From Kangiellaceae bacterium (lineage in GTDB: Bacteria > Pseudomonadota > Gammaproteobacteria > Enterobacterales > Kangiellaceae), in contig JAPHTP010000132.1 in NCBI GenBank assembly GCA_026196875.1, positions 1 through 62,636 of the forward strand: a DNA stretch of 62,636 nucleotides. The letters run 5' to 3'. The translations under genes were made by a program, and so were the position numbers. Positions 693 through 62,636 of this stretch are shown in pieces. The notes below the pieces were generated by a model. That model was not told the origin of the DNA, made no database searches, and worked only from the letters and a program-made list of their open reading frames with translations. The stretch's first letter is position 1, and each line of letters opens with the position of its first letter.

Positions 693-1613
693 TCATTCAT
701 CGAACTTATCCGGCGGCACACACGCATAAACCGGTAATAATGTAAAACTTCCCACAGTTGAGTGATCATGAGTTGGAATATTGATATGCTGGTAGGTAAA
801 TCCCTCGGGACAAGACAAAGGCTCTTTTAAAATCCTAAATGAATCTCCAGGTTCAACTTTACATGGAAAGTCTATACCGCAAACATGAAGATAATTCTCT
901 GGCAAACAGAATCCATCAACTATTTTTCTAGACCAGTTAGCGGGACATTTCCCGACAGGTATTTCGAATTCATATTGTTCAGGCTCAGCGTTGCTCGCTA
1001 GTGTATTGGCAATGCAAAAGTGAAATCCAGGAGGCTTAATAAAGCCAGGATCACACTCCAAAGGCGGGGCTGCAAACAAGCCGGTTGCTTCATCCGGCGG
1101 AACCCCGGTCCCGTCGGTGGGAGCCACTAACGCGAGCTCACTGTGTAGTTCAATTAAAGAAAGCCTTTTTTCGACACATATGTCAGATTCCGGAGGGCGA
1201 GAATAGTTTTCCGGGCAATAACTACCAAACTCTCCCCCAATTAAGTAAAAGCTTTTATTTGCCGACAAAAAGTGATTTTTTTGAGTGCAAAATTTGGTTC
1301 CAACCATTTTCTCATAGTTACGCAAGCAGCGATTATCTGAGGATAGTTCTGTAACGACATTTAAGGTTAAATCTTCTGCAACACAAACATTTAGAATCCC
1401 GCTATGGTTAAACCCGCGTGGACAATCGGTAGCCGAAGAATTCGCTTCATCGATAGTTTTGGTCGTTTCAAAAGTATGACTCTCTTCAAAAACAAGGTGT
1501 TCTTGGCTTGAGCCTGATTCAGTTGCACTGAGTGGGTTAATAAAAAAAGGAAGAAATAATAATCCTTTGCTAATCTGGATTATCGCTCGGCGATTAGTGA
1601 TTAATTGCTTCAT
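693..1613 (-). CDS. secreted CPxGF-repeat protein (copy A)
   Basis: Predicted exported protein of 306 aa. I chose the ATG at 1613 (MKQLITNRR) rather than the one at 1631 because GAGG lies about 9 nt before it and it begins a basic-hydrophobic signal peptide ending near PLSATES. The mature part holds about six degenerate units of the pattern CPxGFxxPxxxxxCVAxxL, each with two cysteines about 14-16 residues apart, for example ECDPGFIKPPGFHFCIANTL. The even, regular cysteines suggest one disulfide per unit in the periplasm or outside the cell. It is a diverged paralogue of the next gene (1762-2670). I recognise no named family and propose no function. Confidence 0.8.
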   Translation of the reverse strand: MKQLITNRRAIIQISKGLLFLPFFINPLSATESGSSQEHLVFEESHTFETTKTIDEANSSATDCPRGFNHSGILNVCVAEDLTLNVVTELSSDNRCLRNYEKMVGTKFCTQKNHFLSANKSFYLIGGEFGSYCPENYSRPPESDICVEKRLSLIELHSELALVAPTDGTGVPPDEATGLFAAPPLECDPGFIKPPGFHFCIANTLASNAEPEQYEFEIPVGKCPANWSRKIVDGFCLPENYLHVCGIDFPCKVEPGDSFRILKEPLSCPEGFTYQHINIPTHDHSTVGSFTLLPVYACVPPDKFDE

Positions 1614-1761
1614 TATTTGGTCCTCAAACATTCCATGTTATACATCAGTTGTACCTCGTTTGCGTTCCGTTTTACCAGCACAGTTCAATTTGATAGAGAA
1701 GATTCAAATTGAACTTTAAAACACTACAACTAACGAAATACAACTATATTTCCAGCCGGTT

Positions 1762-2670
1762 TTAGTTAGCGCTGTTCGGCATATAACTTACAGATTGAGC
1801 TGCGCAGCTCCTAGTTTTGACAAAACCAACAATTTTTCCTGCTTTATCAAATACCGGCATGTCCCACCATAAATCGTATTCGCCTTTTGCACAAGAGGCA
1901 TCTGTACTAGACTTTAGGGTATTTTCAATTTTGATCAGGTCGTATTCACCGCCGGATCTTTCGTCATTGTGTTTTGTTGTCTTGTTTTCCGGCATGCAAA
2001 AACCGTTAGGGCCTCGATGCCAGCCTTCAGGGCAATCTCCTTCAGGAGCCCCAAGCGGATTTTCTAAATCATTGCCGAGATCAAGTACGTTTGTAGCAAC
2101 ACAAAAGCGAACGCCAGGTGGTCGAGTGAAGCCCGGAGGGCAGTCAGATAGTGAAGGCATTGGTAACTCTTTAGGCTTAAGGTTTTCCGCAATACAGAAT
2201 CTAACGCCAACAGGTTGATGAAATCCTTCGGGGCAATTAGGAATATACTTTACCAGCTTAACTTCACGTTCAACCGTATCTAAGACTAAATTATCAGCAA
2301 CGCAAATGCGCGAGCCGACAGGTCGAGAGAAGCCTTCAGGGCAGTCGCCGTTAATTACCGCTTCTAACAGCATCATTTCTTGAGGAATATCGATAGTCAA
2401 ATTCGCCGCGACGCAAAACCTAACACCAGGCACTCGTTCGAAACCTGGTGGACAGTCATGTGGCGGGGGTAACTCCATGACCGGATTAAAAGTCAAGTTG
2501 TCTGCGGCGCAAGCTAATCCTGAGGGTATTGGTGAAAAACCTTCAGGACATCCATTAATACTACCTTCTTGCGCTTGAGTATCACGGCTGCTTCCTGCAT
2601 AGCTATAGGTTGACGCTGACATCATTACTATCAACACCACGCCCACTAGTAATTTAAATAGTTCTTTCAT
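1762..2670 (-). CDS. secreted CPxGF-repeat protein (copy B)
   Basis: Exported protein of 302 aa. The ATG at 2670 (MKELFKLLVG) is preceded by GGAG at good spacing; the longer frame at 2685 would place that GGAG inside the coding region. After a signal peptide ending near TYSYAGS come six units close to DCPPGFxRPPGVRFCVAxNL, much better conserved than in copy A, joined by short linkers. The last unit (GDCPEGWHRGPNGFCMPEN) is shortened. A different C-terminal block with two cysteines (ASCAKGEYDL and TRSCAAQ) follows. Same orientation as copy A, about 150 bp apart, so a tandem duplication. Function unknown. Confidence 0.82.
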   Translation of the reverse strand: MKELFKLLVGVVLIVMMSASTYSYAGSSRDTQAQEGSINGCPEGFSPIPSGLACAADNLTFNPVMELPPPHDCPPGFERVPGVRFCVAANLTIDIPQEMMLLEAVINGDCPEGFSRPVGSRICVADNLVLDTVEREVKLVKYIPNCPEGFHQPVGVRFCIAENLKPKELPMPSLSDCPPGFTRPPGVRFCVATNVLDLGNDLENPLGAPEGDCPEGWHRGPNGFCMPENKTTKHNDERSGGEYDLIKIENTLKSSTDASCAKGEYDLWWDMPVFDKAGKIVGFVKTRSCAAQSVSYMPNSAN

Positions 2671-2761
2671 TACAATTATCTCCATTTAAGTATATTTAGA
2701 GGTACTCATTTGCCTCTATTAGGAGATAACAGCAACTCTCACAAAAACCGGACAGATAAAT

Positions 2762-6537: not shown

Positions 6538-7569
6538 TTAGTCTCTGTCAATACAGGACATGAGCTCTTGTTCCCATGAGTCGACGGATTTTGACGAAAT
6601 AATCTCTATTCGACTCTCCATACATTCATCTAATTCTACCTCGGTTAACATGTCGTCTGCCAAATTATATCCAAATATTCCCTCATTAGTAATAAATGCA
6701 GCTTTAACTCTTTCAACCGACAGACCATTTAGCCAGGAAAACAATCGGCGGCGATCAAATTCTAATTCTGGAGAAAATCGCCAACCTTGACTGCTAAAGC
6801 CTTCTCCTCGGTTTTCTGCTTTAATAAAGCCACTAGTAGGAAGTTCTTTTTCGTGCGAAAGTGGGGTAGGGCTATTTTGAGTGTCAGTACTATAAGAATG
6901 ATCATAGTGCTCTCGTCGGCTATTCAATTTTGACTGAGACTGCCCGGAGTCTTTGTTTAGTAACTCAAAAGAAAATCTACCTTGAACCGTAAACTCAATT
7001 TGATTTTTAGCAAGACCTATTTCTTGCGCGTAAGAAAATAAATTAACTCTGTCCTTTTCATCATAGCAATCTGTTTTGTTTGCAATTATTAAGTCAGCAA
7101 TCTGAATTTGTTGACGAAACGTTTCGTGTTCTGTATATCGTTTGTCCTTGAGTTTTCTGGCGTCGACTAAGGTAACCACCTTTTGAATATCTAGAATATC
7201 TTGGTAGTGCTCCGCTGAAAGCACATCAAGTACTTCTAGCGGGTGACCTAATCCTGTTGGTTCAATTAAAAGTCGGTCAGGTTTAGCATAAGCCAGCAGT
7301 CGATTGAGTGCTATTTGCATCGGCAAGCTTGCCGCACAACACATGCATCCACCTGGCACTTCTCGGATGAAAATACCATTTTCTTCGCTTTGTTGACCTT
7401 TAAACAAGCTTCCATCAATACCTATTTCCCCGAACTCATTGACAAGTACCGCCCAGCGTTCATTGCTTGGTTTACTTTTCAATAAATTAAGTATCGTGGT
7501 GGTTTTACCGACGCCGAGAAATCCGGTAATGATGCTGGTAGGGATGGCTGTGATTAGATCAGTCTGCAT
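6538..7569 (-). CDS. CobW/COG0523-type GTPase (metal handling)
   Basis: G3E-family GTPase of about 343 aa from the ATG at 7569; a TTG four codons earlier is possible. Walker A is GFLGVGKTT, the metal-binding CxCC motif is GGCMCCAAS near residue 75, the switch region is LLIEPTGLGHP and the base-specificity motif is NKTD. A His/Ser-rich linker (EHYDHSYSTD) leads to the C-terminal CobW_C domain. Members act as metal (often zinc) chaperones or insertases. It lies 55 bp after a MerC-like membrane protein in the same direction, behind a palindromic candidate operator, which fits a metal-responsive operon. The exact metal is inference. Confidence 0.88.
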   Translation of the reverse strand: MQTDLITAIPTSIITGFLGVGKTTTILNLLKSKPSNERWAVLVNEFGEIGIDGSLFKGQQSEENGIFIREVPGGCMCCAASLPMQIALNRLLAYAKPDRLLIEPTGLGHPLEVLDVLSAEHYQDILDIQKVVTLVDARKLKDKRYTEHETFRQQIQIADLIIANKTDCYDEKDRVNLFSYAQEIGLAKNQIEFTVQGRFSFELLNKDSGQSQSKLNSRREHYDHSYSTDTQNSPTPLSHEKELPTSGFIKAENRGEGFSSQGWRFSPELEFDRRRLFSWLNGLSVERVKAAFITNEGIFGYNLADDMLTEVELDECMESRIEIISSKSVDSWEQELMSCIDRD

Positions 7570-7624
7570 GGATTTGCCCAATAGAGTTTCGTGAAGAATA
7601 TTAATTTAGATATTCGCAAGTAAT

Positions 7625-8026
7625 CTAGCATTCACATTGGTGTTGTTTGCAAGTTCGGTAATTTTTGATATGGCCGATAGCGATGATAAACGCGCCGATT
7701 AAGGTTAACGACTGCTCTCCTAACTCCCCCACTTTATCATGACCAAGTAGGGAAGCTAGGAATAAGAAAGAGAGCCCGAAAGATCCCCATAAAATTATCG
7801 AAAATTGTTTATGTTGCCGGTAACCCTTGCTTAAAGCAAACGAACTGCTCATAAATACGGCCAAGAGTAACCATTGATGAAATGTCTCATCGTTGAACCA
7901 AAGAGTAGCCATTGAGGGCAAAATTAGAACTAATAGTGGCAACAATAAGCAGTGAATGACGCAGATTATGGAGAGGCTTATTGCTGCTTTGTCACCAAGT
8001 ATTTGGGAATTCAATTTTGTATCCAT
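7625..8026 (-). CDS. MerC-domain membrane protein
   Basis: Membrane protein of 133 aa with four predicted helices and the MerC-type feature of a cysteine pair in the first helix (SIICVIHCLLLPLL). The hydrophilic tail ends RTCKQHQCEC, giving three more cysteines for metal binding. MerC proteins move Hg(II) in mercury operons. Many relatives outside mer operons sit beside COG0523 GTPases under zinc control, as here, and no merA, merP, merT or merR is present. I therefore favour zinc or another soft metal, as inference. No strong ribosome site is visible. Confidence 0.8.
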   Translation of the reverse strand: MDTKLNSQILGDKAAISLSIICVIHCLLLPLLVLILPSMATLWFNDETFHQWLLLAVFMSSSFALSKGYRQHKQFSIILWGSFGLSFLFLASLLGHDKVGELGEQSLTLIGAFIIAIGHIKNYRTCKQHQCEC

Positions 8027-20356: not shown

Positions 20357-20616
20357 TGTAAAGAGATTAACGAAATTGTTCTCACAATTAGAATAATTGG
20401 CAGAAAAATCTTATTCAGTGTGCAAGAACATAGAGTTTGATATACACCGAACAAGGTAGTTCAATAAAATTAGTCTACTTTACAAAACTTTACTTTATGT
20501 CAGTTTAAGAGAAGAAGGTTTAATCAGGGGCTTTTTATGAGAATAGCTCCTTTACTGTAACAAAATCATCCAAAAGCTATCCTATACTCAGATAACACTT
20601 TGATCGGATAAAGACT

Positions 20617-21837
20617 ATGGCTTCTCGACGCTCCAGAATAGAATTTGTAAGCAATGGGATCAAACTCGCGGGTTTGTTAGAAACACCGTCAAATGGTGCC
20701 GTTGCCTACGCCTTGTTTGCCCACTGTTTTACCTGCGGAAAAGACATTGCTGCGGCATCTAGGATTGCTCGAGCGTTAGTTGAGCGTGGCATCGCTGTGT
20801 TAAGATTTGATTTCACCGGACTTGGAAATAGCGACGGCGATTTTGCTAATACAAATTTTTCATCAAACATAGAAGATCTGCTCGCAGCAGCAGACTATCT
20901 GCGTGAGAACTATTTAGCCCCTCAAATTCTAATTGGTCATAGTCTGGGTGGTGCAGCTGTGCTTAATGCTGCTCAAAGAGTTGAAGAAAGCCTCGCTGTA
21001 GTCACGATTGGCGCACCAGCCGATGCAACTCATGTGTCCAGGCAGTTTGAGTGTGACGTTGCTGAAATTGTGAAGAAAGGTAAGGCATCCGTAAGTTTAG
21101 CAGGGCGTCCTTTTACGATTAAAAAACAGTTCTTGGATGATATTGCCAAGTCAAACACTGAGCAGATAGGTCAACTAAAGAAAGCACTGTTGGTAATGCA
21201 TTCGCCTTTAGATTCTGTGGTATCAATCGAGCAGGCTGAAAAGATTTATGTTGCTGCAAAGCATCCGAAGAGCTTTATTAGTCTTGATAAAGCAGATCAC
21301 TTAGTTTCAAACAAAGATGATGCTGAGTACATTGCCGAGAGTATTGCTGCTTGGGTAACCCATTACTTACCTGGTTATCAGGTATTAAGAAAGAAAACTA
21401 CCGGAGCGGATAAAGGTAAGGTTATCGTTAATGAAAGAAATAAAGAGTTTACTCGTGAAGTTCTGAGTGATTCCCATTTCTGGTTAGCTGATGAACCCGT
21501 AAATTTCGGCGGCGCGAACTTAGGTCCCGATCCTTACGAGCATTTATTAGCGGCTCTGGGTACATGCACCTCTATGACGGTTCGAATGTATGCCAATCGT
21601 AAGGGCTGGCCTTTAGAGAGTGTGTCGGTAGAGCTTTCCCATGAAAGAAAACATGGGGAGGATTGTGAAGAATGCGAGACACCAAATCAGAAAATTGAAG
21701 TGCTTTCGAGGGAACTGTCTTTTACTGGAGGACTTTCTAAAGAACAAACCCAAAGACTAATTGAAATTGCGGACAAATGTCCGGTCCATAAAACGTTGGA
21801 AGGGGAGCTCAGGATATCCACTCACTTAAAAGAATGA
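20617..21837 (+). CDS. alpha/beta hydrolase-OsmC fusion protein
   Basis: A 406-aa fusion of two domains. Residues 1 to about 260 form a serine hydrolase with HCFTCGKD (oxyanion region), nucleophile elbow GHSLGG, and a late acid/base pair ending in [11 protein letters not shown]. Residues about 275-406 are an OsmC/Ohr-like domain with redox cysteines at about 315 (LGTCTSMT) and 388 (CPVHKTLEG), which reduce organic hydroperoxides in this family. The same fusion is known widely, annotated as bifunctional alpha/beta hydrolase/OsmC protein. The hydrolase substrate is unknown. The gene is alone on its transcript. Confidence 0.92.
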
Positions 21838-59585: not shown

Positions 59586-59933
59586 TTACGACTTTTGACT
59601 ATCCTGATCAGAGTTGCTTCCAGGAAGGGCTATTTGTGGTGAGTCTTGACTTGCATGATGGTATTCCGGGTGTTTTCCTTGAATGAAATAAGCGAAGGCA
59701 ATTATTTTGGCTACAGCGAGATAAAGCTGTTCGGGGATTTCATCACCCAGCTCAAGTTTGCTCAAGACCTCTAGTAACACCGGGTCATTATGGATGTGTA
59801 CTTCGTTTTGTTCGGCTATCTCAATCATTTGGCGTGCAACTTCGCCATAGCCTTTAGCGACTACAGTTGGTGCATTTTGACCATCATATTTAAGTGCTGC
59901 CGCGCGAGTAATGTCGGAATTATTTTCGTTCAT
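59586..59933 (-). CDS. FlhB C-terminal-domain homologue (export-switch type)
   Basis: A 115-aa protein equal to the cytoplasmic domain of FlhB/YscU, without the membrane part. It contains AAALKYDGQNAPTVVAKGYG, ARQMIEIAEQNEVHIHNDPV and LLEVLSKLELGDEIPEQLY. The self-cleaving NPTH loop of FlhB is replaced by DGQNAP, so no autocleavage is expected. Its ATG overlaps the FliK-like stop (ATGA). Such proteins (YlqH/FhlB type) modulate flagellar export. Confidence 0.88.
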   Translation of the reverse strand: MNENNSDITRAAALKYDGQNAPTVVAKGYGEVARQMIEIAEQNEVHIHNDPVLLEVLSKLELGDEIPEQLYLAVAKIIAFAYFIQGKHPEYHHASQDSPQIALPGSNSDQDSQKS

Positions 59934-61960
59934 ATGCGGATATCTACTTTTTCTTCAGTCGCCTTCGCTAACTCTTCAGCTGCGAGTTGTTCGGGGACTA
60001 ATCCTTGCTGTCCACCTAAGCGTTCTATATCTAACCCTGCGCCCAACAGGCTATTGTGCAATTTATCCAGGTGTTGGTTGATCAAATCTGAAGTAGATTT
60101 TTGTTTGGCATAAAAATCAGTTGTGATGCGTTCGTCGTTAAGTGAAACTCTGGCAAATACGGGGCCAAGAGGTTCTAATTCGAATCGAATCGTTACCTTC
60201 CATTGGCGACAGGATTTCAAATTTCGTTTGGAATTTTTCCCGTCGAATAACATCTCAAATGAATCGATATGAGAGTTATGGTGGATTGGCAAATCTACCA
60301 AATATTGAATTAATCCCATATTAGCGGCACGTGCGGATAGTAGTTGATTGGTTTCGATACGTTGCAGCATTGCCTCGCTTGATTTGTGTAAGTTACCGAG
60401 CAACTCTTTGTAAGCTTGGATATCCAACTGTTGATTGTTATTTAGTTTAGCTTTGTTATGGGACGGTTTAAGCTGGAGCCAGTTAACATAGTGGCCTAAG
60501 AGTTCTATAGTACGCGCTGAAAAATTAAGGTTTTGGGTCAAGTTCGGTAAATTGGAAGTTAAGTTTGTCAGCTGATTTAACGGGACTATGTTGGTTTGTA
60601 CAAGTTTAGAATTGGTGTTCTGTGATTCCGAAGTTGAATGGGATAGAACAAGCGTCGAAGCGGCTAAATTCAGATTAGAATTATGAGAAGTATTAACAGA
60701 GTTTTTTGCCAAAACCTGATTAAGAGCACTCTGCAATAATGGACTCTGGGCAAGCTTTTGGATTAATGGTGTTAGTTTGTTGTTTTGCTCAATAAATTGC
60801 CCGAAGTGTTTGCTATGTTGATAAAAATCTTTAAGGATGAATTTTAAATCTAGTGGTTGAGAAGAAGTCCTGGAATTAGGCAAATTAACTTGTTTCGACT
60901 GAGCTGAATCCACGTAAGTTTGACTAACTTGATTTATCGTCGAAGTGCTTTGGGGGGGAGTTCGTTTAACCGGGGCTTGTGCTAAGTTAGACTCCATAAA
61001 ATTCCCACTTTGAAGTAAGCGGTTTTGGATAGAAACGCTCGCTTTTTTATCTGATGGGTTAGCTATTGCTTGGATTTGTTGAAACGAATTGAGTAAATTT
61101 AAGAGTGACCTTAACCCGGCCGCTAATTTATTATTAATCGGCAAATAGTTTGCCTGGACCAGTTCTTTTAGCAGAGTTACAGAGTCGTTAAGTTTAAAAT
61201 TCGAATATAAAGTATTTGGAGCCTCATTTTTAGAGAGTCCTAATATCCGCTGAGCCAATAAGTGCGTATTCTCATTTAGCTGATTAAAGTGCTTAGCAAC
61301 AGTTGAGTTAGCCGACCCTGTATCATTTTTTAGAATTGCTTTTAAGGCTTGAGAAATTAGCTGCTGTGTATGTTCATTTGGCTGGCCCGTATTTGCTTTT
61401 GTTGAGTGTGTTGACCCCTTGAGTAAAGACGTTGGTGGCGGTTGTCTTAGCTCATTTGCTCTTACCTTGTCGTTTGATAGATTGTTTTGAGTGGACGACA
61501 GAGCATTAGATGATTCGCTCCGTCCGGCTAACTCACCCTTATTTATTAGGTTTGCTAACAAAACAGTCTGCTTATCTACTGCTACAACTTTAGTGAAAGC
61601 TAGAGTTTGTATCAGTGGTTGAGACGATTGGTTTTGATTCGAAATTGGTACGGTGGTTTTAAGTTGGATAGTGTTTCCAATACGGTTGAGTACAATTTGT
61701 TGGCTACCGCTAAGTAATTTTGTTAGTTGCGACTGTGATAATTCCAACAACAGGTTTTTAGGAATATCAGCCGTTTTCGCTGTTGAATTTGAAGACTGTG
61801 GAGTTAACAGCGTGATTTGGGTTAATCGATTGGACTTCATTAAAACTGACTCAATCTGCAACGGTTTATCTAGTAATTTGCCCGCCACTTCCATATCTAG
61901 CGGAGTAGAGCGTGAGTTTAGGCTAGATAGCTTATCCGAATCGGTAATCTGTAGCTTCAC
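59930..61960 (-). CDS. flagellar hook-length control (FliK)-like protein
   Basis: A 676-aa protein, low-complexity and rich in Asn, Gln, Ser and Thr over most of its length, as in FliK rulers. The C-terminal 120 residues fold like the FliK switch domain, with WKVTIRFELEPLGPVFARVS and a tail helix LHNSLLGAGLDIERLGGQQG. It is coupled by a 4-bp overlap to the FlhB-C-domain gene, the domain FliK contacts in flagella. The start is uncertain: GTG at 61960 lies inside an 11-bp repeat, and an in-frame ATG at 61894 is possible. Confidence 0.8.
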   Translation of the reverse strand: MKLQITDSDKLSSLNSRSTPLDMEVAGKLLDKPLQIESVLMKSNRLTQITLLTPQSSNSTAKTADIPKNLLLELSQSQLTKLLSGSQQIVLNRIGNTIQLKTTVPISNQNQSSQPLIQTLAFTKVVAVDKQTVLLANLINKGELAGRSESSNALSSTQNNLSNDKVRANELRQPPPTSLLKGSTHSTKANTGQPNEHTQQLISQALKAILKNDTGSANSTVAKHFNQLNENTHLLAQRILGLSKNEAPNTLYSNFKLNDSVTLLKELVQANYLPINNKLAAGLRSLLNLLNSFQQIQAIANPSDKKASVSIQNRLLQSGNFMESNLAQAPVKRTPPQSTSTINQVSQTYVDSAQSKQVNLPNSRTSSQPLDLKFILKDFYQHSKHFGQFIEQNNKLTPLIQKLAQSPLLQSALNQVLAKNSVNTSHNSNLNLAASTLVLSHSTSESQNTNSKLVQTNIVPLNQLTNLTSNLPNLTQNLNFSARTIELLGHYVNWLQLKPSHNKAKLNNNQQLDIQAYKELLGNLHKSSEAMLQRIETNQLLSARAANMGLIQYLVDLPIHHNSHIDSFEMLFDGKNSKRNLKSCRQWKVTIRFELEPLGPVFARVSLNDERITTDFYAKQKSTSDLINQHLDKLHNSLLGAGLDIERLGGQQGLVPEQLAAEELAKATEEKVDIRI

Positions 61961-61979: not shown

Positions 61980-62449
61980 ACTGGAGAATTTATGTTGTAT
62001 GGAATGGTAAAAGGCTCAATAGCAATGTTTTAGTCGCTCCAATAGATAGTATATCGGCCAATAGCAAGACAATCTTTAGCAAAGGCAACGCTGTTAAGAC
62101 AAAAAGGACTATATTGTTCAATATTATTGAAAATACGACTATCTGATGCTTATTTGTGACGAATTGCACAAAATGCGGTTGCAAATGCAAATGAGCTAGT
62201 GCATCTTAGGCAGTGAGATTGCGCATCTGGCGATGTTAAATCTCAAAAAGCAAATAAAATCAATAATATAGTGAATCTTAATGTTGATAAATATTGGCTG
62301 TTTGAAGAAGGAATACCTGACATTCGGTTGGTAAATTTTCTCAACTTACAGGTGTAACATTTAGAAAATAGCGAACTCTAAAAGGTACCTAACTTTATCA
62401 GGTAATTAGCCCGTTTTGGGTTCATTTTTTAACTAGGAGCAAAACTCTC
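61961..62449. other. divergent intergenic region
   Basis: No gene seen in 489 bp. It carries promoters for the FliK-like gene and for the HvfA-like gene. Near the latter are GGTACCTAACTTTATCAGGTA (ends only inverted) and the ribosome site TAGGAG at 62434. Confidence 0.4.
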
Positions 62450-62636
62450 ATGAAAAAACTATCTAAGATTGTAGCACTGGTCGGGGCTTTCTTTATGGCC
62501 ACTATGTACGCGAATGTAGCTTCAGCAGAAGCTAATCCTTTCGCTAAGAATGACCAAATCCAAACCATTGCCGGTGATGGCGACGGCAAATGCGGCGAAG
62601 GCAAGTGTGGCGAAGGTAAAAAAGGCAAAAAAGGTA
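62450..62636 (+). CDS. HvfA-like Cys-repeat metallophore precursor, 3' truncated by window edge
   Basis: Exported precursor; the first 62 codons are visible. TAGGAG precedes the ATG by about 11 nt. The signal peptide MKKLSKIVALVGAFFMATMY runs on to ANVASA. The mature part begins EANPFAKND and passes into DGKCGEGKCGEGK and then GKKGKKG. EGKCG repeats in a small exported protein define the HvfA (BufA2-like) group. In characterised members the cysteines are modified by a DUF692/MNIO iron enzyme with its partner protein, giving copper-binding peptides. The expected maturation genes lie past the window end, so the assignment rests on the precursor alone. Confidence 0.82.
   Translation, partial: MKKLSKIVALVGAFFMATMYANVASAEANPFAKNDQIQTIAGDGDGKCGEGKCGEGKKGKKG

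What the first reader, a model, noticed from the sequence alone, without database searches (positions are those of the whole stretch)
62450..62636. HvfA-like precursor at the window edge: likely copper-peptide biosynthesis locus
The exported peptide has EGKCG repeats, as in precursors whose cysteines are turned into oxazolone/thioamide copper ligands by an MNIO (DUF692) enzyme and a partner protein. Only the precursor start is visible. The neighbours cut off by the window should hold the enzyme pair and often a DoxX-type membrane protein. This is the most likely undescribed natural-product system here.
Basis: partly seen in the sequence, partly recalled or inferred. Interest (0 to 1): 0.7.

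Follow-up and report, generated by a model that had tools for sequence, protein, structure and literature searches.

The report
Copper-peptide precursor without its enzymes
The window ends inside a gene for a secreted cysteine-repeat peptide of a family that is normally chemically modified to bind copper, but in the close relatives that could be read the two modifying-enzyme genes are gone from that place while the peptide gene is still kept by natural selection, which suggests that it works unmodified.

Summary
In detail: window 62450-62635 starts an exported HvfA-type (EGKCG) peptide, cut by the end of the contig (C161, 62,636 bases). The predicted enzyme pair is not supported. The 6.28-Mb assembly has no MNIO (PF05114) and no DUF2063 gene, although it also lacks the DNA just downstream.

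In four other-genus relatives the order is ccm-hvfA-hvfB-hvfC-mlaA. The window's genus (Aliikangiella relatives) and a second genus carry hvfA-mlaA with hvfBC missing, in 11 of 11 genomes with the locus intact. Seven of these 11 have no MNIO anywhere, including near-complete A. marina.

The orphan peptide is not decaying: leader dN/dS is 0.06-0.46, and a promoter-like TGTAAC-N16-NNTC, shared with enzyme-linked family members, precedes 12 of 12 main-locus copies. Yet the leader motif L..GY is lost, and the E and G of EGKCG have relaxed while K-C-G stays.

Best reading: a former RiPP precursor now used unmodified as a stress-induced periplasmic thiol/metal sink. A second enzyme-free group exists. 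Orphans were known as rare (67 of 2,583 genomes, PMC12452194) and thought possibly dead; a selected, clade-wide case is the new part. No chemistry was tested.

The parts
62450..62636 (+). 5' part of the orphan HvfA-like precursor gene (62 codons, cut by the contig end)
   Evidence: full-length orthologues of 103-146 aa in 11 relatives
62450..62527 (+). Sec-type signal peptide, ending ASA (site judged by eye)
   Evidence: conserved in 12 aligned leaders
62528..62587 (+). Linker EANPFAKNDQIQTIAGDGDG: keeps the ANPF anchor but lacks the L..GY motif found in 41 of 45 enzyme-linked precursors
62588..62635 (+). Start of the K-C-G repeat core (KCGEGKCGEGKKGKKG)
62353..62378 (+). Promoter-like TGTAAC-N16-ACTC, ECF-sigma type (inferred from comparison)
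   Evidence: present in 12 of 12 main-locus orphans and 23 of 23 enzyme-linked genes of the family; not significant within the window alone
62435..62439 (+). Shine-Dalgarno-like AGGAG
   Evidence: alignment of upstream regions
59930..61960 (-). fliK-like gene (Flg_hook), divergent neighbour; synteny anchor only
   Evidence: Pfam PF02120; directly beside the precursor in G002, G003 and G005, farther off with ccm genes between in others

Best explanation
This is an orphan captophorin/oxazolin (HvfA) precursor. In the common ancestor of the window's genus and a second genus, the MNIO and DUF2063 genes between hvfA and mlaA were deleted (absence shown in relatives; a single loss and the same state in this strain are inferred). 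The peptide gene stayed under selection with the family's promoter-like element (shown by comparison). The product is exported and most likely works with free cysteine thiols, as a disordered, Lys/Cys-rich periplasmic metal (copper) or thiol buffer induced by envelope or metal stress (inferred). The leader motif and the E-G part of EGKCG decayed because no enzyme reads them any more, while K-C-G stayed because thiols still do the work (inferred from residue statistics).
For: Synteny: ccm-hvfA-hvfB-hvfC-mlaA in 4 linked relatives read (G009, G010, G011, G013), hvfA-mlaA in 11 of 11 orphan-genus genomes with the locus intact. No PF05114 in 8 of 13 and no PF09836 in 9 of 13 genomes of the two genera, including A. 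marina (8 contigs, 100% complete) and Aliikangiella sp. G2MR2-5 (names). The MNIOs looked at in G001, G002, G008 and G018 sit with a DUF2282 or another Cys-rich precursor. No hvfB/hvfC remnant at E<=1. Leader dN/dS 0.06-0.46 where dS is not saturated. TGTAAC-N16-NNTC in 12 of 12 main-locus orphans; shuffles give 0.07 per 13. L..GY in 41 of 45 linked and 0 of 18 unlinked peptides. E at -3 of Cys: 460/466 linked against 67/116 orphan; K at -1: 116/116 in orphans.
Against: The window strain's own downstream DNA is missing, so an intact hvfBC there is not strictly excluded. L..GY is also absent from 4 of 45 linked precursors (3 of family f8, and L022 with GF), so its loss does not prove loss of modification. 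Five of 13 genomes keep some MNIO that could act in trans. Sequences are related, so counts are not independent events; most dS values are near saturation. K at -1 is partly favoured by how the ORFs were picked. The promoter pattern is missing from A. marina's second copy, from 6 of 6 f7 orphans and from 19 of 22 linked genes outside the family. A terminator-like hairpin also lies between hvfA and hvfB in enzyme-linked G010, so the orphans' terminators are no special sign. In Microbulbifer an EGKCG cluster was not detected in proteomes with added copper (PMC12538549, passages). No expression, metal-binding or mass data. AlphaFold gave an unreliable, mostly disordered model (pLDDT 42), without an enzyme-linked control.
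Confidence: 0.6

Rival explanations
1. The peptide is still modified, in trans, by a bufferin-type MNIO elsewhere or by an unrelated, unrecognised enzyme acting on the K-C-G repeats.
For: G001, G002, G008 and G018 keep MNIO and DUF2063 genes; published FonBC tolerates many substitutions at positions 1-2 of the repeat (PMC13097082, section 12); the peptide is clearly selected.
Against: 8 of 13 genomes have no PF05114 at all, yet their peptides look the same; the MNIOs looked at have their own precursors; the leader, which helps recognition by HvfBC (PMC13419390, passages), has changed; some orphans lost the double-repeat spacing (L127, L128, L130).
Confidence: 0.2
2. The window strain is an ordinary HvfABC locus and the enzyme genes simply fell into the assembly gap.
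For: The gap is real: mlaA is also absent and contig C34 ends inside the conserved response-regulator gene further along.
Against: All five congeners with the locus intact (G002-G006) lack hvfBC there; the window's leader is of the orphan type, without L..GY.
Confidence: 0.06
3. A dead or dying gene: a precursor left behind after loss of the pathway, no longer functional.
For: Suggested in general terms for rare orphans in PMC12452194 (Discussion, read in full); recent homogenisation of repeats can preserve cysteines without selection on each.
Against: Intact ORF and signal-like N-terminus in each of 12 complete copies across two genera and the promoter-like motif in 11 of these 12; dN/dS well under 1; A. 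marina even has a second, diverged copy (L088).
Confidence: 0.05
4. The unmodified peptide is retained for a role unrelated to metals, for example a polycationic envelope or redox peptide that buffers disulphide stress.
For: Core more positive than in linked peptides (mean net charge per residue 0.166 against 0.064); neighbours in many orphans are ccm-type genes (haem-thiol handling) and mlaA.
Against: The promoter type resembles that of metal-stress peptide operons and K-C-G is kept; no direct evidence either way.
Confidence: 0.15

Closest known systems
HvfA / oxazolin / captophorin precursors (Buf_EGKCG family; HvfABC, FonABC, MmrABC)
   Same: Sec signal peptide, repeated K-C-G units, often in pairs; same genomic slot before mlaA as the enzyme-linked genes of its own bacterial family
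   Different: No MNIO (HvfB) and no DUF2063 partner (HvfC) beside it in 11 of 11 readable relatives, no MNIO in 8 of 13 genomes; L..GY leader motif lost; E and G of EGKCG relaxed
Stand-alone Buf_EGKCG precursors counted in PMC12452194 (67 of 2,583 genomes with the precursor lack MNIO)
   Same: Precursor without enzyme in the genome
   Different: In the sections read they are only counted; here a lineage with conserved locus, promoter-like element, selection on the leader and a motif shift is described
Bufferins (DUF2282 and 6/12-Cys) and the Caulobacter sigma-F regulon
   Same: Promoter architecture (GTAACC-N16-CGAA in Caulobacter, PMC3511200, passages; TGTAAC-N16-NNTC here) and exported Cys peptides
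   Different: Other precursor families; linked to MNIO-DUF2063-DoxX; different -10 element
Metallothioneins and Csp copper-storage proteins (recalled)
   Same: Would work alike: many cysteine thiols binding Cu(I)
   Different: No sequence relation shown; no solved structure matched A. marina's peptide at E<=0.01

Membership tests
HvfA/captophorin RiPP precursor (modified product) | Exported peptide with EGKCG repeats | tested here: met
   Window: truncated, 1 EGKCG + 1 DGKCG. Full-length orphans have 7-12 KCG; exact EGKCG fraction 0-0.90, mean 0.54 in 12 orphan copies
HvfA/captophorin RiPP precursor (modified product) | NCBIfam cut-offs NF050137 (19.5) and NF050188 (95 bits) | tested here: inconclusive
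   Window 15.1 and 33.5 bits, truncated. Orphans L124 and L122 pass NF050137, L127 has no hit; enzyme-linked L099 and L095 also miss NF050188
HvfA/captophorin RiPP precursor (modified product) | MNIO gene (PF05114) next to the precursor | tested here: not met
   In relatives 0 of 11 readable loci; in the window strain the DNA is missing
HvfA/captophorin RiPP precursor (modified product) | MNIO anywhere in the genome | tested here: not met
   Own genome 0; none in 8 of 13 genomes of the two genera, some MNIO in 5 of 13
HvfA/captophorin RiPP precursor (modified product) | DUF2063/PME1 partner (PF09836) | tested here: not met
   Own genome none at E<=0.001 (best E 0.54 with stops inside)
HvfA/captophorin RiPP precursor (modified product) | Leader/linker motif for enzyme recognition (L..GY, a marker proposed here, role not tested) | tested here: not met
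   0 of 18 unlinked against 41 of 45 linked
HvfA/captophorin RiPP precursor (modified product) | 5-thiooxazole on Cys | not testable with these tools
   needs mass spectrometry
ECF-sigma-regulated stress peptide | GTAAC -35 with N16 spacing upstream | tested here: met
   12 of 12 main-locus orphans, 0.07 expected per 13 by shuffling; in the window alone 2 hits against 1.54 expected
ECF-sigma-regulated stress peptide | Cognate sigma factor and metal induction | not tested
   the sigma gene was not searched for; induction needs an experiment

The most novel reading that the evidence does not exclude
RiPP precursors can shed their enzymes and live on as a secreted, encoded metallothionein-like class. 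It happened in perhaps two gammaproteobacterial lineages (Aliikangiella plus a second genus; and family f7 near dus/apt/dnaX genes), each time with loss of the leader motif and relaxation of EGKCG to K-C-G, while export, repeats and (first lineage) the stress-type promoter were kept.
Probability: 0.45. Interest if true: 0.7.

Novelty: new variant of a known kind. Interest (0 to 1): 0.52.

Why it matters
It asks whether the modification is always needed for copper-buffering EGKCG peptides. A natural series of enzyme-linked and enzyme-free orthologues in one bacterial family, with the same promoter-like element and locus, makes this directly testable: a similar peptide with and without thiooxazoles. 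It also warns genome miners that EGKCG peptides do not always mark a RiPP pathway.

Tried and rejected
Looked for the missing enzymes in the own genome with PF05114 and PF09836: none. Looked for the other side of the gap with MlaA (not found) and the response regulator (found at the end of C34). Considered decay and rejected it. Considered that genomes with an MNIO use it on this peptide: the MNIOs looked at sit with a DUF2282 or another Cys-rich precursor; not excluded. G002 has a third PF09836 match (C9) whose surroundings I did not read. Pfam, PADLOC and a PDB sequence search gave nothing. AlphaFold on an alignment of 10 orphans: pLDDT 42, uninformative; the beta-helix published for a family member (PMC12452194) could be neither confirmed nor refuted, and no linked control was run. 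The promoter pattern inside the window alone is at chance level. The pattern is absent from G004's second copy and from 6 of 6 f7 orphans. I first took the terminators after the orphan genes as a sign of a new single-gene unit; enzyme-linked G010 has a similar hairpin there, so I do not lean on it. Tree of MlaA plus response regulator puts the two orphan genera on one side of a branch with only moderate support, 76/81: a single loss is the simplest reading, not shown.

Rows dropped: L068 (truncated duplicate of L085) and L058 (contig ends at the gene, a linked-type leader) were set aside from the orphan counts; one search counts L058 as linked. G004's second copy is counted among orphans for motifs but not as a main-locus copy. 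G001 has no readable precursor because its contig starts about 260 bp before mlaA. L093 holds an identical precursor on another contig of the same MAG as L092 and is counted once.

Full report
What is there. The window is the whole of contig C161 of a 6.28-Mb, 188-contig genome. Its last 187 bases hold the start of an ORF with a signal-like N-terminus and K-C-G repeats. The HvfA model matches at E 4.9e-8 but below its cut-off; two complete enzyme-linked homologues also miss that cut-off.

Who carries it. Searching 40 genomes of the same family with the repeat model gave a match at E<=1 in 37; two of the other three (G015, G024) do carry the gene when read. The window is therefore from an Aliikangiella-like species whose own name was not obtained. 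A scan of the genome-contig collection (84,980 species) with the orphan leader alignment gave 11 loci, with titles Aliikangiella (3), Kangiellaceae or Kangiella MAGs (5) and three MAGs named only at class or order level.

The enzymes are missing. In G009, G010, G011 and G013 (other genera of the family) the order is ccm-type genes, hvfA, MNIO, DUF2063 protein, mlaA. The MNIO of all four is a PF05114 hit, and the DUF2063 gene of G009, G010 and G011 a PF09836 hit. In the window's genus (g1) and a second genus (g3) the order is hvfA, mlaA, PilZ, response regulator. Upstream there are ccm-type genes in G004, G006, G008, G012, G015, G018, G021 and G024, but the divergent fliK in the window, G002, G003 and G005. 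Of the 13 genomes of these two genera, 11 have the locus intact, and in all 11 the mlaA-like frame opens 103-308 bp after the hvfA stop (G015's mlaA is split in two frames). tblastn with two HvfB and two HvfC proteins found no remnant at E<=1 in 15 orphan-genus stretches (one of them the window) and 6 f7 stretches. Genome-wide, PF05114 is absent from 8 of 13 (G000, G003, G004, G005, G012, G015, G021, G024) and PF09836 from 9 of 13 (the same plus G006). G006 has only an MNIO fragment at a contig end. The MNIOs of G001 (a fragment), G002 (one of two), G008 and G018 follow a DUF2282 precursor; the second of G002 follows a 13-Cys protein without a Pfam match.

The window strain itself. No PF05114, no PF09836 at E<=0.001, but also no mlaA. 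The conserved response regulator is cut by the end of contig C34 (25,181 bases). So a stretch between hvfA and the response regulator is missing from the assembly. Absence of hvfBC is inferred from five congeners and from the window's orphan-type leader.

The gene is maintained. Leaders (47-49 codons compared) of 13 copies show dN/dS of 0.06-0.46 wherever dS is not saturated; most dS values are high, and the closest pair, G021/G024, has dS 0.50 and dN 0.05. Each of the 12 complete copies has an intact ORF with 7-12 KCG. A T-run preceded by a hairpin begins 47-82 nt after the stop in 12 of 12 complete copies, without a shuffle control; enzyme-linked G010 also has a hairpin and T-run between hvfA and hvfB, so this is not specific to orphans. 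A TGTAAC-N16-NNTC motif lies upstream of 12 of 12 main-locus copies, the window included (62353-62378), and of 23 of 23 enzyme-linked family members, where five matches lie inside an over-long called ORF. Outside the family 3 of 22 linked genes have it. Mononucleotide shuffles give 0.07 per set of 13, at most 2 in 300 sets. The motif is absent from A. marina's second copy, and in the window alone it is at chance level. It resembles the sigma-F element GTAACC-N16-CGAA before the MNIO operons of Caulobacter (PMC3511200, passages) and ECF16 (T/C)GTAAC-N17-CGAA (PMC8315932, passages); the -10 part differs.

The enzyme-specific signals have faded. L..GY between signal peptide and core occurs in 41 of 45 precursors with an MNIO within 1.5 kb. 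The four without it are three of family f8 and one with GF. It occurs in 0 of 18 unlinked ones after setting aside a truncated duplicate and a contig-end case. At position -3 of the cysteine, E is found in 460 of 466 linked and 67 of 116 orphan sites of the two genera; G at -2 in 460 of 466 and 89 of 116; K at -1 in 457 of 466 and 116 of 116 (the ORFs were picked by [KSQ]CG content, which favours K). Mean exact EGKCG share per peptide is 0.96 against 0.54 (Mann-Whitney p 7e-8; related sequences, so indicative only). Published work says that the Sec signal peptide helps recognition by HvfBC (PMC13419390, passages) and that FonBC modified only the substrate with two repeats (PMC13097082, section 12).

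A second group. In 248 genomes of the order, 69 have an HvfA match at E<=1e-4; of the 49 outside the family, 46 have PF05114 and 3 do not (G102, G175, G205), all in family f7. With G042, G153 and G241, whose MNIOs lie elsewhere, six f7 genomes carry an unlinked EGKCG peptide: five next to a dus-like gene, and four with apt- and dnaX-like genes downstream (Pfam of the three neighbours for G102 only). Their leaders also lack L..GY and 26 of 76 sites have K at -3. They lack the TGTAAC motif. Whether they arose separately from the Aliikangiella orphans was not tested by a tree.

What is known. PMC12452194 (sections 15, 20 and 21 in full, other passages) counts 67 of 2,583 precursor-bearing complete genomes without MNIO and says that such peptides may need no modification or be no longer expressed or functional. 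The listings of searches for HvfA/MNIO, EGKCG/DUF692, oxazolin, bufferin stand-alone, Aliikangiella and captophorin, and the passages and sections I read, showed no description of a maintained orphan lineage; the library holds open-licence papers only and most listed papers were not read. Against a simple copper story, an EGKCG cluster of Microbulbifer was not detected in proteomes with added CuSO4 (PMC12538549, passages).

Judgement. Loss of the enzymes at this locus in the relatives is about 95% sure, in the window strain about 90%. Maintenance by selection about 90%. Use in the unmodified state about 70%. A metal (copper) buffering role about 55%. The last two are inference and need chemistry.

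Noticed in passing
window 20556-20581, before 20617-21837 (+): A second TGTAAC-N16-NNTC match lies about 60 bp before a fused alpha/beta-hydrolase-OsmC gene, a plausible stress gene; the match is at chance level in the window (2 found, 1.54 expected).
   Followed up: partly
window 693-1631 and 1762-2685 (-): Two neighbouring proteins with signal-like N-termini and 14 cysteines each and no convincing Pfam family (one weak CPW_WPC match, 24.4 bits against cut-off 23).
   Followed up: no
window 6538-8026 (-): A CobW-type GTPase next to a MerC-type membrane protein, possibly metal homeostasis.
   Followed up: no
L088:6202-6573 (A. marina, G004:C7): A second, diverged orphan EGKCG peptide gene between a Colicin_V-domain gene and a DUF6491 gene, without the TGTAAC motif.
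   Followed up: partly
L118:4475-5246 (G015): mlaA appears split into two frames in this MAG; could be an assembly error.
   Followed up: no
L131, L132, L133, L134, L135, L151: Six genomes of family f7 carry unlinked EGKCG peptides, mostly near dus/apt/dnaX-like genes; three of the genomes have no MNIO at all.
   Followed up: partly
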